Source of the DNA: a virus
IMG/VR virus record: IMGVR_UViG_3300006790_000002
Location: 1-53,910 of that record
Strand: one strand, 5' to 3'
Length of the DNA stretch: 53,910 nucleotides
The translations under genes and the position numbers were made by a program. The notes beneath the pieces were generated by a model. That model was not told the DNA's origin, made no database searches, and saw nothing but the letters and a program-made list of their open reading frames with translations. This document shows positions 47,384-53,778 of this stretch, piece after piece. How positions within the stretch are numbered: the stretch's first letter is position 1; each line of letters opens with the position of its first letter.

Positions 47384-47411
47384 TTGACATTCTCTTGACA
47401 AGGATTATAGT
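47384..47411 (+). promoter_or_regulatory. Strong sigma70-type promoter for the plus block
   Basis: TTGACA (47384-47389), 16-bp spacer, TATAGT (47406-47411): six and five consensus matches. A second TTGACA at 47395-47400 makes the tandem element found also at 4772-4788. It is about 80 bp upstream of the first gene of the plus block and is likely an early promoter. Confidence 0.65.
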
Positions 47412-48023: not shown

Positions 48024-48049
48024 CCTCCGGCCAGACAGGCCAAAAGCGC

Positions 48050-48080
48050 TCCAGGGGACTTGTCTCCTGGGGCCTTTTTG
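48050..48080 (+). terminator. Rho-independent terminator after the first plus-block gene
   Basis: CCAGGGGAC and GTCTCCTGG form a stem, followed by GGCCTTTTTG. It is 27 bp after the stop of the 176-aa gene and separates it from the next operon. Confidence 0.85.
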
Positions 48081-48150: not shown

Positions 48151-48164
48151 CCTTGCGACGCTAC
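48151..48164 (+). repeat. 14-mer CCTTGCGACGCTAC, copy 1
   Basis: Exact copy of 53765-53778. Each copy lies about 70 bp downstream of a terminator and just upstream of a new plus-strand operon. A TTGACA at 48174-48179 follows this one. Confidence 0.75.
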
Positions 48165-48516: not shown

Positions 48517-48984
48517 ATGAACATCTTCATCCTTTCCGCTCACCCGGTTCTCGCTGCCGAGGACTTGTGCGACAAGCACATCGTCAAGATGTGTCTTGAG
48601 ACCGCACAGCTACTTAGCACTGCCGCTCGGGCTCACGGTGCCGACTGCGACGAACTGTACAAGTCGACGCACGTCAACCACCCGTGTTCTGTCTGGGCTC
48701 GCACTTCCCGCGCAAACTACCGCTGGTTACTTCTGCACGGTGACGCTATCGGACACGAGTATGGAAGGCGCTACGGTAGGATTCACAAATCTGCCTGGGT
48801 CATCCAACGCGCTCGGGACTTCCTGACACTTCTGCCCGACACGCCGATGACGCCTTTCGCTTTGGCTATGCCTGACCAGTACAAGTCAAGTTGCCCTGTG
48901 TCCTCTTATCGCCGCTACTACCGCTGCGAGAAGTCAGACATTGCTCAGTGGAAGCATTCCCGAACTCCCTCATGGTGGGTATGA
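48517..48984 (+). CDS. Conserved phage protein with CDKHIVKM motif
   Basis: A 155-aa protein. The N-terminus MNIFILSAHPVLAAEDLCDK-HIVKM, then ETAQLLSTA, NHPCSVWAR and a C-terminal YRRYYRCEKSDIAQWK identify a family widespread in tailed phages. Its biochemical role is not known to me. Conserved Cys/Asp/Lys/His residues at 18-21 suggest a catalytic or metal site. GGAGG precedes the start. It ends just before the first hairpin leader. Confidence 0.8.
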   Translation: MNIFILSAHPVLAAEDLCDKHIVKMCLETAQLLSTAARAHGADCDELYKSTHVNHPCSVWARTSRANYRWLLLHGDAIGHEYGRRYGRIHKSAWVIQRARDFLTLLPDTPMTPFALAMPDQYKSSCPVSSYRRYYRCEKSDIAQWKHSRTPSWWV

Positions 48985-48992
48985 CACCGACG

Positions 48993-49024
48993 AAACTTCC
49001 CGGGTTCTTCAGCCCGGGGAGTTT
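48993..49024 (+). ncRNA. Leader hairpin A (12-bp stem, TTCTT loop)
   Basis: AAACTTCCCGGG (48993-49004) pairs with CCCGGGGAGTTT (49013-49024) across the loop TTCTTCAG. The stem matches hairpin B at 52700-52727, with a base-pair swap (A-T to T-A) and a moved G-T wobble. It is 50 nt upstream of the MoxR-like gene, with ACAAAGGA between. A cis-acting RNA element is the likely reading; no T run, so not a terminator. Confidence 0.7.
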
Positions 49025-49073
49025 AGCCGGTAGCATGTCGCTGCTGGAAACCACAAACAAAGGAAACAGAGAA

Positions 49074-50249
49074 ATGGATTTCTCGAAAATGAATGTGTTG
49101 TTCGAAACGCTCGATATGGCGTTGAACTCTAAACCCTCGCAGCCAGTTCTTATCTGGGGCATGGACGGATGCGGCAAGTCGCGCGGAGTCGAAAGCTACA
49201 TCCGCCAGAACATGTCAAATGCCGACGGGTCAGATGTGAAGTACTGGTTCCTCAACGGAAACTCCATGGACACCACGGACATTCCGGGTCTCTTTGCCCG
49301 GGGAGAAGATGGCGAATGGGGACGTGTTCCAGTTCTGCGAGCCATCAAAGAGGCTGTGGAAGAACAGGCAAAGGGGAACCAATACGTGTTCATCTTTGAA
49401 GAGTTCACGACGATGAACAAAGCCGTCATGGCTCCGTTCCTCTCACTTGTCTCCGAGAAAGTTGCGGGAGACTTGCGGCTCGACGAGAACCTGACTCACA
49501 TCATCGCGCTCGCTAACCCTCCCGAGATCGCGGTCAATCCGACGCATCTTGCTCCTCCGGTATCTACCCGGTTCTTGCACTTGCAGTGGAAGATGGACTT
49601 TGCTTACTGGTCGGAAAACATGATGGAAGGCAACTGGTTTCCAGGAACTCAAGAGGCAGCAGCAGATGTCATCTCCTACCTGGTCGGCAAGTGCAATCCT
49701 GACTCGCCAAGCTTTGACGAAACTTCCGGTTTCGCACAAGCTCCATCTCGTGAGTTCATGAACAAGACTCGGGGCAATCCTCGGACTTGGACGAATCTGA
49801 TCAAGGCGGATTCTACTGCCCGGGAGTGTGGCGCTTCCTTGCGTGCTCGCGAGATTATGTTCCGCGGCATGGTCGGTGAGGGCCTTGGGCGAGAATACGC
49901 TTCCTGGCTCCGGATGCAAGCGGACGGTCTGGACGTTATCGCTGCTTTGAAGGATCCCGCTTCTGTCGAGATACCGACTCGGACTGACCGGCAGTTTGCG
50001 TTCTTCAATGCTGTGGCTGCTCGTGTCTCGATGACGATGGACCCGGACGACTTCTACAACGCCTGGGAACTTCTCTCCAAGACGAACGACCGTGACTTGG
50101 CAGTTCTGCCCGCTCGCACATTGGGCAAGTTGCTCCAGAAGAAAGACGGCACAAAGCTCATGAAGAAGCGTGGACTTCATCCGACCGTGATGGAGTACGG
50201 CGAAATGCTCATGGGACTGAAAGCCATTCTTGCCGACATGAAGCAGTAG
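49074..50249 (+). CDS. MoxR-like AAA ATPase
   Basis: A 391-aa AAA+ ATPase with Walker A GMDGCGKS (29-36), Walker B VFIFEEF (105-111), sensor ALANPP (145-150) and an arginine in STRFLHL (R166). MoxR-type ATPases act as chaperones that load or remodel VWA-domain partners, and a VWA gene follows one gene later. The ATG at 49074 follows ACAAAGGA; an in-frame extension overlapping the preceding gene was rejected. A small CCGGG hairpin lies inside the gene (49282-49303). Confidence 0.88.
   Translation: MDFSKMNVLFETLDMALNSKPSQPVLIWGMDGCGKSRGVESYIRQNMSNADGSDVKYWFLNGNSMDTTDIPGLFARGEDGEWGRVPVLRAIKEAVEEQAKGNQYVFIFEEFTTMNKAVMAPFLSLVSEKVAGDLRLDENLTHIIALANPPEIAVNPTHLAPPVSTRFLHLQWKMDFAYWSENMMEGNWFPGTQEAAADVISYLVGKCNPDSPSFDETSGFAQAPSREFMNKTRGNPRTWTNLIKADSTARECGASLRAREIMFRGMVGEGLGREYASWLRMQADGLDVIAALKDPASVEIPTRTDRQFAFFNAVAARVSMTMDPDDFYNAWELLSKTNDRDLAVLPARTLGKLLQKKDGTKLMKKRGLHPTVMEYGEMLMGLKAILADMKQ
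49282..49303 (+). repeat. Hairpin C inside the MoxR-like gene
   Basis: TTCCGGG (49282-49288), loop TCTCTTTG, CCCGGGG (49297-49303). It has the same CCGGG...TTTG-CCCGG design as the leader hairpins, but encodes PGLFARG. Confidence 0.5.
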
Positions 50250-50261
50250 GGGGACGGACTT

Positions 50262-51305
50262 ATGACTACCAAGTTTTACCCGCTCGTGTGGACGAAAGTC
50301 CGATGTCTCGGTGAGCACCATGCGGTGTTCTTGATGGAGACTGCTTCTGGCAAAAGGAGCCTGGCACTTCCTAAGCATAGGAGAGATTCCGAGAACTCCC
50401 TGGAGCGTGTGCAAGCGCTCCAGGTTCTTGCTCCGGAGTTTCGCTGTCGATGCTACGAGGTACTTTGCGCCTGGCGTGTCTACTGTAGTTGGACAGATGG
50501 GCAGATTCAGGCAATGCTCAAGTCTACCCTGCGAGATAGGCCAGAAGCGATTCCGCTCTTGAAAGCTATGCGGGAAGTATCCAGCAAGAAGACACGAGCA
50601 AACCTGCAAGTCAGCCCTTCAAACGTTCTTGCTCTCATCCCGAAAGAGTTGCGGATGTATGCGGAAGAAGCCCGTCAGAAGCGAGCCTATCGAGTTGACA
50701 AGAACAAGGACGAGTGGAGACGGACTATCTACCACACGGGCAACTGGGAGAAAGCTCTCCAGAAGTTGCCCAAGGGAGAGCGGACGTTCATACATTCTCG
50801 GAACTACCGAGACTCAAGTGTGCGGTCCCGGAAGCTCGCTGAATCGTTCAAGTCGCGATATGGGTTTGGCTTCCGAGAGAACCAAGGGGACTTTGTCGAT
50901 AAATGGTTCCGCAAGAGGTTAGCGCCTGCTGGCCTTGCGGGACAGGAGCATCGAACTGGAGCACTGAGAAGTAAGCCGTTCAACTTCATTCAAGATGTTC
51001 CCCATCGGCCCGACGGTACGAAATACGTATCTGCCCAGTACTGGATGCGGCACTGGTGGGATCACCAGTGGTTCCGGGAACTGTGCGAGTTCGGGTTTGC
51101 TCCTTCTTCCATCCCGCCTCAAGAAATGTGGATCCACAGGCGAGAAGGCGAGAAGGTGTTTCCGTCCCACCCGGCAACTGTCATCGGTGTGACTTTCAAA
51201 GGAACTACCTACTCTTGTTTCACAAAGTACTGGATTCGCATTGAGCGCGTCGCAGGCAACTGGCACTTTCGAGTATCTACCCACCCCATCACCACGCGGT
51301 ACTAA
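50262..51305 (+). CDS. Unknown 347-aa protein between MoxR and VWA genes
   Basis: A 347-aa basic protein rich in aromatic residues (FNFIQDVPHRPDG, YWMRHWWDHQWFRELCEF). I cannot assign it. Its strict position between an AAA ATPase and a VWA-metallopeptidase suggests that it is the substrate, adaptor or third subunit of that pair. GGGGGACGGACTT precedes the start. Stops 13 bp before the VWA gene. Confidence 0.75.
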   Translation: MTTKFYPLVWTKVRCLGEHHAVFLMETASGKRSLALPKHRRDSENSLERVQALQVLAPEFRCRCYEVLCAWRVYCSWTDGQIQAMLKSTLRDRPEAIPLLKAMREVSSKKTRANLQVSPSNVLALIPKELRMYAEEARQKRAYRVDKNKDEWRRTIYHTGNWEKALQKLPKGERTFIHSRNYRDSSVRSRKLAESFKSRYGFGFRENQGDFVDKWFRKRLAPAGLAGQEHRTGALRSKPFNFIQDVPHRPDGTKYVSAQYWMRHWWDHQWFRELCEFGFAPSSIPPQEMWIHRREGEKVFPSHPATVIGVTFKGTTYSCFTKYWIRIERVAGNWHFRVSTHPITTRY

Positions 51306-51318
51306 CAAAGGAAAAACA

Positions 51319-52584
51319 ATGGAACTTACAGAACAGCAAATGTCGCAGGCCACCAAGGAGCTGCAACTTATCCGCCTCGGAGCTTTCGAGGTTTATCCCT
51401 CGATGGCTTCCGCCATCTTTGCCACTCAGCTTGTTGTCTCTCCGGAACTACGCGACAAGTCAGGAGCTTCCTGGTGTGTCGATGAGTTCTTCCGGGTCTA
51501 CGTTGACCCACGGGTTCTTATCGGCCCGGAGAAAGAGACAACTCTCCAGTCCATCGCTTCTCTCTTGCACGAGGTGCAGCATCCTCTGAGAAATCACTTT
51601 GAGCGGTTTCGTCTGATGCGCGAGAAGGATGGAACTCCTGTCAACCTCCGGAACGCAAATCTCGCTGCGGACATGGCGCTGAACAGTCAGGAGTTCCTGC
51701 GGAAGAATCTTCCCAAGAACTGCATCTTCCCAACTTCCTTCCCTTCCAAGAGAGGATACCCTCTCCCCTGGGGACAAACGACGGAGTACTACTATGAGAA
51801 CGCCCGCTTTCCAGAACAAGAGGAAGACGGAGAAAACTCGACATTCGGAGAAAGCGCCGATGCTGTCGGGGGAGAGAGATCCTGGGAACTTGGGCCTCCT
51901 TCAGAAGAGAATCCAGGATGCACGCAAGAAGACATCGAAGAGATCCAAGAAGCTTGCGCCCGGGAAGTTCGAGAGCAAGAGAAGAACGACCCGGGTTCTT
52001 TGCCCGGGGATCTCGTTGAGTGGGCAGGCGAGATTCTCGAACCTCCCAAAGTCGACTGGCGGGAAGTTTTCGCTCAACTCCTCAAGGAGTCGCAAGAGCG
52101 AACTATCGGAGCAAGCGCGTTTACCTTTGCCCGTCCGAACAAAAGAACTTCCGTACTCCATGACGACATTGTTCTTCCTGCGGTCTACGAGCCAACGCTG
52201 AATCCTGCCCTGGTGGTAGATTCATCTGGCTCGATGTCGGACGAGGACTTGAACCACTGCTTCAGCGAGATTGGGGAAGTTCTCCAGATGTCAGCTTCCG
52301 AGACATTCGTTGTGACAGGTGACACGAAAGTCGACTTTGCTGGTTACGTCCATGACGTTGCAGGCGTGGAGATCAAGTCGCGCGGTGGCACGAACATGAC
52401 TCCTCTCTTCCAGCGAGCAGTCCAGGAAGTTCCCGACTGTATCGTGGTGATGACTGACGGATGGTTCGACTTTCCTCGCGAGGCAGAACTTGACGGTATC
52501 CCGCTCATTGTGTGTCTTATCGGGAACTCGACTCGTCACTATTGTCCCAACTGGGTTGATGTCGTGGAGGTGAAAGATGACTGA
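51319..52584 (+). CDS. Zincin-like metallopeptidase / VWA domain protein (DUF2201-like)
   Basis: A 421-aa fusion. N-terminal part: HEVQH (84-88), an HExxH zinc motif, and NLAADMALN (114-122), which supplies the third ligand region in this family. Residues about 165-230 are an acidic linker. C-terminal VWA domain: MIDAS D301-S-S-G-S305, the T in GGTNMTP (about 358-361) and D380. Such proteins normally pair with MoxR-type ATPases, as here. The role in the phage cycle is unknown. The start follows ACAAAGGA; an in-frame extension into the previous gene was rejected. Confidence 0.88.
   Translation: MELTEQQMSQATKELQLIRLGAFEVYPSMASAIFATQLVVSPELRDKSGASWCVDEFFRVYVDPRVLIGPEKETTLQSIASLLHEVQHPLRNHFERFRLMREKDGTPVNLRNANLAADMALNSQEFLRKNLPKNCIFPTSFPSKRGYPLPWGQTTEYYYENARFPEQEEDGENSTFGESADAVGGERSWELGPPSEENPGCTQEDIEEIQEACAREVREQEKNDPGSLPGDLVEWAGEILEPPKVDWREVFAQLLKESQERTIGASAFTFARPNKRTSVLHDDIVLPAVYEPTLNPALVVDSSGSMSDEDLNHCFSEIGEVLQMSASETFVVTGDTKVDFAGYVHDVAGVEIKSRGGTNMTPLFQRAVQEVPDCIVVMTDGWFDFPREAELDGIPLIVCLIGNSTRHYCPNWVDVVEVKDD
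51990..52008 (+). repeat. Hairpin D inside the VWA gene
   Basis: CCCGGG (51990-51995), loop TTCTTTG, CCCGGG (52003-52008). It has the same loop word as the leader hairpins and encodes PGSLPGD in the disordered linker. Confidence 0.55.
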
Positions 52585-52690
52585 TTGGGAAGAATGGCTG
52601 GCAGAACAATCTTGCTACGACCCATGTTTTCAGGAGTTGTCTATCCTTGCGATACTTCTCCTTCCGACCTTCTCACCTGGAGAAGCTTGA
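52577..52690 (+). CDS. 37-aa hydrophobic micro-protein, coupled to the VWA gene
   Basis: A small ORF that starts eight bases before the VWA stop. It has an acidic start (MTDWEEWLAEQ), two cysteines and a hydrophobic segment (LSILAILLLPTF). Overlap with the VWA gene suggests translational coupling. No other evidence of function. Confidence 0.5.
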   Translation: MTDWEEWLAEQSCYDPCFQELSILAILLLPTFSPGEA

Positions 52691-52699
52691 GTCTCCCTC

Positions 52700-52727
52700 T
52701 AACTTCCGGGTTCTTGCCCGGAGGTTA
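52700..52727 (+). ncRNA. Leader hairpin B (11-bp stem, TTCTT loop)
   Basis: TAACTTCCGGG (52700-52710), loop TTCTTG, CCCGGAGGTTA (52717-52727). It matches hairpin A with compensating changes, and is followed by AGCTGGTGCA where A has AGCCGGTAGCA. It ends 39 nt before the next ATG, again with ACAAAGGA in between. Confidence 0.72.
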
Positions 52728-52766
52728 GCTGGTGCAATCAAGCGCCCGCTCAACAAAGGAAATATC

Positions 52767-53591
52767 ATGAGCATCGAAAAGTCAGTAAAGTACAACGGTA
52801 TCACAGTCTTCTGGAGCCTCACGGATGGAACGTCCATCTCGAAACTCCGCGACGGGTTCGATCTTATCGGTCGGCAAGATTTGCTTCCGGATACTCAGAA
52901 CGTAGCTCAAGCTCTGCGCCGTGCGATTCAGCAGAACTTCCCGACCCGCAACAAGATCATTCGTCCCTTGAAGGGAGGTATCGGTTTCGCGGTTGTCCAC
53001 GAGGAAGAAACTATCGACGAGAACAACAACCGCAAACTCGTTCACGAGGAAGAACTCCGCGTTGTCTACTCGGGATGCATTCTCTCCAACCCGTGTGATC
53101 ATCCTAAGATGGATGCCATCGAGGAAGCGTTTCGTGTCGAGCGGCAACAAGTGACTGCTGCCAAGTTGGGAGGAATCCTGGTCAAGGCTTGCAACGGACT
53201 TTCGGGAATCCCGCTCCGTCCGCGTGGTGGGTTCTACTGGATTCCGAACTCGAAAGCTGACGAGTGGGAATCAATCGTCAATGTCATCGAGCAGGCAAAT
53301 CCGAGTAACCGTGTGTGGCGCATGAAGACTACAACTGACAACGAGACAGTTGACGCTGTCTGCGACTCGCTGGTGATTGAAGTCGAGAAGCAGTTGGAGA
53401 ACTTGTCCGAATCTATCCTGACGGAAGACTTGGGTAAGCGTGCTCTCAAGACGAAAGAGACGAACGCGCTGGAACTGAAAGCTCTCGTTTCGGAGTACGA
53501 ACAGATTCTTGGGAAGACGCTCACAAAGCTCCAGGAGAAAGCGGAAGAAGTTCACGCATCGGCCTCGGTCGCGTTACTTCAATGTCTGTGA
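52767..53591 (+). CDS. Conserved 274-aa protein after the VWA module
   Basis: A 274-aa protein. Residues 1-200 are mixed, with GIPLRPRGGFYWIP (about 150-163) as the clearest motif. The C-terminus is a long coiled coil (about 205-265). Similar proteins often accompany AAA/VWA gene pairs in phages, as I recall, but I cannot name a function. The start is at ATG 52767, after hairpin B and ACAAAGGA. The stop shares its A with the next small ORF (TGATG). Confidence 0.75.
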   Translation: MSIEKSVKYNGITVFWSLTDGTSISKLRDGFDLIGRQDLLPDTQNVAQALRRAIQQNFPTRNKIIRPLKGGIGFAVVHEEETIDENNNRKLVHEEELRVVYSGCILSNPCDHPKMDAIEEAFRVERQQVTAAKLGGILVKACNGLSGIPLRPRGGFYWIPNSKADEWESIVNVIEQANPSNRVWRMKTTTDNETVDAVCDSLVIEVEKQLENLSESILTEDLGKRALKTKETNALELKALVSEYEQILGKTLTKLQEKAEEVHASASVALLQCL

Positions 53592-53663: not shown

Positions 53664-53695
53664 AAACCCTCGGGGGCAACTCCGAGGGTTTTTTT
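53664..53695 (+). terminator. Strong rho-independent terminator at the end of the AAA/VWA arm
   Basis: AAACCCTCGG (53664-53673) and CCGAGGGTTT (53682-53691) form a perfect 10-bp stem with an 8-nt loop and a run of seven Ts. It closes the operon that starts near 48.2 kb. Confidence 0.95.
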
Positions 53696-53764: not shown

Positions 53765-53778
53765 CCTTGCGACGCTAC
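53765..53778 (+). repeat. 14-mer CCTTGCGACGCTAC, copy 2
   Basis: Exact copy of 48151-48164, 70 bp after the terminator and 14 bp before the LexA-like palindrome of the replication arm. Confidence 0.75.

What the first reader, a model, noticed from the sequence alone, without database searches (positions are those of the whole stretch)
48993..52727. Duplicated leader hairpins with compensating base changes
Hairpin A (48993-49024, before the MoxR-like gene) and hairpin B (52700-52727, before the 274-aa gene) share an 11-12-bp stem, a TTCTT loop, a 3' flank AGC(C/T)GGT and a downstream ACAAAGGA. The outermost pair is A-T in A and T-A in B, and the G-T wobble moves by one position, so pairing rather than sequence is kept. 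This is evidence for a cis-acting RNA element that controls the AAA/VWA arm.
Basis: partly seen in the sequence, partly recalled or inferred. Interest (0 to 1): 0.75.

Follow-up and report, generated by a model that had tools for sequence, protein, structure and literature searches.

The report
Paired RNA hairpins before two phage genes
Two short RNA folds sit between a stop codon and the next start site in front of two genes of an uncultured phage; four related phages keep the same folds at the same places with different letters, so they are real structured RNA, probably controls on translation, though no experiment shows what they do.

Summary
The two hairpins are real. Four relatives (L002, L003, L014 and a MAG-borne phage, here C243) carry a hairpin at both positions, although the encoded proteins are only 38-82% identical. 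Stems are rebuilt with new letters. In B, 17 pairs x 5 genomes are 100% paired, with 7 pairs changed on both sides. In A, the first stem has 59 of 60 cells paired. The stems hold 26 G-U pairs and no A-C, which points to RNA of the + strand. The UGA ends the upstream ORF in 9 of 10 cases; for A the five upstream ORFs differ. Not upheld: A and B as proven duplicates (similarity above chance only in the window; a model without the Shine-Dalgarno does not link them); TTCTT as a shared loop; control of the arm (inferred). Loop-to-Shine-Dalgarno pairing is weak, and a flank/P2 switch is no better than chance. Rfam has no match. Best reading: a new intercistronic phage leader element acting on translation of AAA(-g347-VWA) and DUF6744, perhaps as a protein-bound operator. 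Structure is near certain; mechanism is open.

The parts
48981..49076 (+). Element A, whole: AUGA (UGA 48982-48984 is the stop of the upstream ORF) to the AAA start codon 49074-49076
   Evidence: Alignment with four relatives; conservation between window and L002/L003 begins at 48981; five different upstream ORFs stop at this UGA
48993..49024 (+). A, stem P1 (12 pairs, 14 in RNAfold), loop UUCUUCAG
   Evidence: 59 of 60 cells paired over 5 genomes, up to 8 pairs with both letters changed between two genomes; fold
49027..49047 (+). A, second hairpin P2: CCGGUAGC-AUGUC-GCUGCUGG
   Evidence: 8 pairs in the window and L003, one mismatch in L002, shortened or bulged in L014 and C243; compensatory changes
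49057..49064 (+). A, Shine-Dalgarno ACAAAGGA
   Evidence: Same box before five other + strand genes
49074..50249 (+). MoxR/dynein-type AAA ATPase, 391 aa (gene behind A)
   Evidence: Pfam AAA_5, PHROG 1297 ATPase
50262..51305 (+). 347-aa gene of unknown function between AAA and VWA, no element
   Evidence: ORF list and no Pfam/PHROG match
51319..52584 (+). DUF2201 metallopeptidase + VWA-like protein, 421 aa, no element
   Evidence: Pfam DUF2201_N and DUF2201; leader z +1.06
52577..52690 (+). Small ORF (37 aa) overlapping the end of VWA, whose UGA begins element B
   Evidence: related small ORF in L002, L003; a short ORF ends at the same UGA in L014
52688..52769 (+). Element B, whole: UGA to the start codon of the 274-aa gene
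   Evidence: 17 pairs x 5 genomes, 100% paired, 7 pairs with two-sided changes, 0/500 shuffles as well paired; model R1 finds it in all five genomes and no third copy
52699..52728 (+). B, stem P1 (12 pairs, 13 in RNAfold), loop UUCUUG
52731..52746 (+). B, second hairpin P2: GGUGC-AAUCAA-GCGCC; the stretch GGUGCAAUCA is invariant in five genomes
52753..52760 (+). B, Shine-Dalgarno ACAAAGGA
52767..53591 (+). 274-aa DUF6744 protein (gene behind B)
   Evidence: Pfam PF20529 E 2e-10; AlphaFold model matches four uncharacterised viral proteins, nothing in the PDB

Best explanation
A and B are copies, in function if not provably in descent, of an intercistronic RNA element on the sense strand: stop codon UGA, 8 nt, a 12-16 bp stem whose sequence is free (P1), 1-3 nt, a shorter hairpin with kept sequence (P2), 4-13 nt, Shine-Dalgarno AAAGGA, start codon. 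They open two translation units: AAA-g347-VWA-small ORF (other junctions in the run are tight) and DUF6744. Shown: structure, position, strand, two per genome in five genomes. Inferred: that the element sets the translation of the next gene, most likely as an operator in which a phage or host factor grips P1/P2 and the conserved flank next to the ribosome-binding site, so that both units respond together.
For: Orthologous pairing kept with new letters: B 85/85 cells, 7 pairs with two-sided changes, shuffles 88% paired; A P1 59/60 cells; between the window and C243 nine of twelve A pairs differ, eight on both sides, and all still pair. 26 G-U against 0 A-C cells, so the + strand RNA is what folds. 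The intercistronic gap is filled from stop codon to Shine-Dalgarno, and UGA-to-P1 is 8 nt in 10 of 10. In B the flank UGAUUCUC and CUGGUGCAAUCA are nearly invariant while P1 and the spacer are not, as expected of a specific binding site on a structural scaffold. Only these two of 16 tested gene starts are structured. No Rfam family.
Against: No binding partner is known; the DUF6744 model has no solved relative. The 5' flanks of A and B differ (CANCGACN against UUCUCYYU behind the UGA) and P2 of A is less conserved than P2 of B, so one common factor is not proven. The Shine-Dalgarno is open in most predicted folds, so repression without a partner is not predicted. No expression data exist.
Confidence: 0.42

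Rival explanations
1. Cis-only termination-reinitiation device: the two hairpins shorten the path from the upstream stop codon to the next Shine-Dalgarno, and P1 abuts the terminating ribosome, so translation is handed on or held back without any partner.
For: UGA-to-P1 is 8 nt in all ten elements; UGA is the upstream stop in 9 of 10, with five different upstream ORFs at A; P1 is free in sequence but not in pairing.
Against: Does not explain the invariant GGUGCAAUCA and flank of B; in C243 the VWA stop lies 7 nt before the conserved UGA, not at it.
Confidence: 0.25
2. RNA processing or stability signal: the hairpins are cut by an RNase III-type enzyme or protect the ends of the cistrons, as at T7 intercistronic sites.
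For: Intercistronic hairpins of 12-16 bp in front of units in one polycistronic run; phage mRNAs including T7 are known RNase III targets (PMC5371410).
Against: P1 is short against the 22-nt minimum double-stranded region used as a criterion in PMC5371410; a cutting site does not need the conserved P2 loop and flank of B.
Confidence: 0.18
3. Antiterminator RNA that rides on RNA polymerase, like HK022 put.
For: Two copies per genome, each of two adjacent hairpins in about 60-70 nt, as in put (PMC9378689); a strong terminator follows at 53664.
Against: put sites lie near early promoters; A and B lie flush between a stop codon and a Shine-Dalgarno, kilobases behind the best promoter match at 47384; model R1 finds nothing in HK022.
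Confidence: 0.05
4. Switch or pseudoknot that hides the Shine-Dalgarno: the P1 loop pairs with AAGGA, or the 5' flank pairs with P2 in place of P2's own 3' arm.
For: Loops are pyrimidine-rich, combined p 0.0014 for loop-Shine-Dalgarno pairing; column 7/52 of A covaries C-G to U-A in the flank/P2 pairing; the two folds are close in energy in B.
Against: Single elements reach p 0.01-0.22 only, loops do not prefer their own Shine-Dalgarno and B of L014 has a UUCG loop; flank/P2 pairing is no better than with random flanks (combined p 0.30 and 0.45).
Confidence: 0.06
5. Not RNA: an N-terminal coding extension or upstream peptide (A), or a palindromic DNA site.
For: In the window and L014 the frame from the AUG of AUGA is open into AAA; B is partly palindromic as DNA.
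Against: The frame to AAA differs among the five genomes (0, 1, 1, 0, 2) and the leader changes alter the peptide; 26 G-U and 0 A-C cells fit single-stranded RNA, not DNA.
Confidence: 0.04

Closest known systems
HK022 put RNA (PMC9378689)
   Same: Two related copies in one phage, each about 70 nt of two adjacent stem-loops
   Different: put sits close to early promoters and acts on RNA polymerase; A and B fill the gap between a stop codon and a Shine-Dalgarno; no match of model R1 in HK022
Extended Start Associated Sequences of Cluster K mycobacteriophages (PMC3203893)
   Same: Phage elements with inverted repeats just upstream of the start codon of some genes, suspected to act on translation
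   Different: SAS has a fixed 13-bp sequence (GGGATAGGAGCCC) in 11-19 copies; here two copies, free stem sequence, no such box
Translational operators of ribosomal proteins, e.g. rplY, rpsO, alpha operon (PMC10931766)
   Same: Conserved hairpins or folds in front of or around a ribosome-binding site that a protein grips to set translation
   Different: No binding protein known here; two operators in one run; not a ribosomal protein gene
T7-type RNase III intercistronic sites (PMC5371410 and general knowledge)
   Same: Hairpins between cistrons of a phage transcript
   Different: P1 is short for RNase III and P2/flank sequence is conserved
AAA ATPase + VWA gene pair of viruses (PMC7911831)
   Same: AAA ATPase gene near a VWA gene in viruses; here with one gene between
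   Different: No RNA leader is mentioned in the passages read there; the pair itself is known, the leader is not

Membership tests
Structured cis-regulatory RNA (general kind) | Pairing kept through changes on both sides in orthologous positions | tested here: met
Structured cis-regulatory RNA (general kind) | Regulation of the downstream gene | not testable with these tools
   No expression data
Any Rfam 15 family | Match to a covariance model | tested here: not met
   No match at either element in the window, L014 or C243
HK022 put RNA | Two adjacent stem-loops, about 70 nt, two copies per genome | tested here: met
   PMC9378689
HK022 put RNA | Location within about 300 nt of an early promoter | tested here: not met
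   Best promoter match 47384, A at 48981 and B at 52688; only a consensus scan
HK022 put RNA | Sequence relation to put | tested here: not met
   Model R1 has no match in HK022
SAS/ESAS | GGGATAGGAGCCC box before the start codon | tested here: not met
   Not present in either leader; definition from PMC3203893
RNase III site | Double-stranded region of at least 22 nt | tested here: inconclusive
   P1 is 12-16 bp, 24-32 paired nt in all but under two helical turns
Intrinsic terminator | Run of U behind the stem | tested here: not met
   Neither hairpin is in the terminator list
A and B as one duplicated family | Sequence/structure model of one recognises the other without the shared Shine-Dalgarno | tested here: not met
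   R2 scores A at E 0.17, P1 only; R1 with Shine-Dalgarno E 0.003

The most novel reading that the evidence does not exclude
A phage RNA device in which a stop codon, a fixed 8-nt gap and two hairpins form one unit that senses the terminating ribosome and, with a bound phage factor, switches translation of an AAA/VWA chaperone-like machine and its DUF6744 companion together.
Probability: 0.12. Interest if true: 0.75.

Novelty: new member of a known kind. Interest (0 to 1): 0.5.

Why it matters
It adds a phage leader RNA with direct comparative support, absent from Rfam, in a group of uncultured phages, two per genome and tied to a widespread but unexplained AAA/VWA module. If it is an operator, the factor that binds it would show when and why phages make this machine; the paired sites give a simple reporter test.

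Tried and rejected
Loop-to-Shine-Dalgarno pseudoknot: weak, no preference of a loop for its own Shine-Dalgarno, broken in B of L014 (one search used a wrong null for the two window elements and was redone). Flank/P2 switch: attractive at one covarying column but not better than random flanks. Upstream peptide or N-terminal extension of AAA: frames differ and changes alter the peptide. Stop-codon readthrough (UGA, 8 nt, stem): frame into AAA is kept only in L002 and L003 (from the sequences). Hairpin-like CCCGGGTTCTTTGCCCGGG at 51990 inside VWA and CCGGGTCTCTTTGCCCGGG at 49284 inside AAA: coding sequence, the VWA one not kept as a perfect stem in L002. Third copy in the five genomes: none convincing. 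Relatives in INPHARED: no close one. Pattern hits L017-L019 and L021-L028: chance matches without the hairpin. DUF6744 as an RNA-binding protein: no solved fold matched. DNA polymerase profile in 398 genomes of the phylum of the MAG: only the MAG contig itself.

Full report
CHECK. Both hairpins exist. A folds to 14 pairs and B to 13 in RNAfold, z -4.2 and -4.5 against dinucleotide shuffles. Perfect hairpins of 12 pairs or more are expected about three times per strand of the whole window, so two in two intercistronic gaps of about 90 nt is unusual. Of 16 gene starts only these two have structured leaders. Corrections to the finding: B has one more pair at its base (C-G, 52699/52728), and ACAAAGGA is this phage's general Shine-Dalgarno.

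RELATIVES. Searches with AAA, helicase and DNA polymerase found four more genomes that hold the region: L002 and L003 (AAA 82% identical), L014 (54.6 kb, AAA 62%, DUF6744 44-46%) and C243, a 57.4-kb contig in a MAG (JAERSQ010000243.1; polymerase 74%, AAA 38%, DUF6744 57%). Every one has an element before AAA and one before DUF6744.

STRUCTURE. For B, P1 (12 pairs) and a second hairpin P2 (5 pairs) are paired in all five genomes; 7 pairs changed on both sides; sliding the partner by one to three columns drops pairing to 27-44%. In C243 P1 of B is CUACCUAUCCGUC/GGCGGGUAGGUAG, mostly new letters. For A, P1 is AAACUUCCCGGG/CCCGGGGAGUUU in the window, GAAACUCAGGGA/UUCCUGGGUUUC in L014 and CAAGCGCUUCCC/GGGGAGCGUUUG in C243: 59 of 60 cells paired. 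These A pairs were read by hand, because the MAFFT alignment misplaces the 3' arm of C243. P2 of A is paired with compensatory changes in the window and L003, with a mismatch in L002, and is partly rebuilt in L014 and C243. The stems hold 26 G-U and no A-C cells: the + strand RNA folds, not the other strand and not DNA.

ANATOMY. UGA to P1 is 8 nt in all ten elements; P2 to AAAGGA 4-13 nt; AAAGGA to start codon 4-10 nt. UGA is the stop codon of the ORF before it in 9 of 10. At A the upstream ORFs differ: a pyrimidine dimer glycosylase-like gene in the window (Pfam Pyr_excise) and four other short ORFs elsewhere; similarity between genomes begins at this point. In C243 the B flank TGATTCT is doubled and VWA stops at the first copy. 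What is kept in sequence is the 5' flank and, in B, CUGGUGCAAUCA; P1 and the last spacer are free. Within the run, g347 and VWA start 12-13 nt behind the previous stop and have no element.

ARE A AND B COPIES? They share architecture and a stretch GUU(U)AGCYGGU(A)GCA. Sequence similarity is beyond chance in the window (p 0.0017) but not in the relatives (p 0.05-0.70). A model of B with the Shine-Dalgarno ranks A next after the B sites; without it A falls to noise. Duplication is possible, not shown.

MECHANISM. The element fills the gap between a stop and a ribosome-binding site, so an effect on translation or on the mRNA at that point is the natural reading (inference). A conserved, sequence-specific P2 and flank on a free-sequence stem looks like a site for a factor (inference); the fixed stop-to-stem distance fits a role of the terminating ribosome as well (inference). 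Two cis-only ideas were tested and not supported: loop-Shine-Dalgarno pairing and a flank/P2 switch.

KNOWN THINGS. No Rfam family matches. put RNA of HK022 is the nearest in shape (two copies, two stem-loops; PMC9378689) but not in place, and R1 does not match HK022. ESAS of Cluster K mycobacteriophages is nearest in place (PMC3203893) but has a fixed sequence box. The AAA/VWA pair itself is known in viruses (PMC7911831). DUF6744 has no solved fold; its model matches four uncharacterised viral proteins, one from Haloarcula vallismortis tailed virus 1.

VERDICT. A real, conserved, previously unlisted phage RNA element (about 0.97 sure of the structure); translation-level operator is the best but unproven mechanism (0.42). 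L002 and L003 are close to each other, so the comparison rests on about four independent lineages.

Noticed in passing
L045 (C243), minus strand, contig positions about 47668 and 46767: Two other leaders share CGGGATAGCCCG ... TATGCCGCTGC before AAAGGA: maybe a second family of leader hairpins in that phage.
   Followed up: no
window 48151-48164 and 53765-53778; L002 4719-4734: CCTTGCGACGCTAC occurs twice in the window between genes, and CCGCTACG precedes ACAAAGGA in L002: another short intergenic repeat.
   Followed up: no
window 51319-52584: PHROG 1314 names this DUF2201/VWA family 'HNH endonuclease'; Pfam gives a putative metallopeptidase plus VWA-like domain, so the PHROG name is probably wrong.
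   Followed up: partly
window 48517-48984: Pyrimidine dimer DNA glycosylase-like protein (Pfam Pyr_excise) that PHROG 624 lists as DNA binding protein; replaced by other ORFs at this position in the relatives.
   Followed up: partly
L014 14422-14494: A tRNA gene (Rfam tRNA, 63.9 bits) just before the DNA polymerase gene of the relative.
   Followed up: no
window 53664-53691 and 48048-48073: Two strong intrinsic terminator matches bound the run that holds A and B.
   Followed up: no
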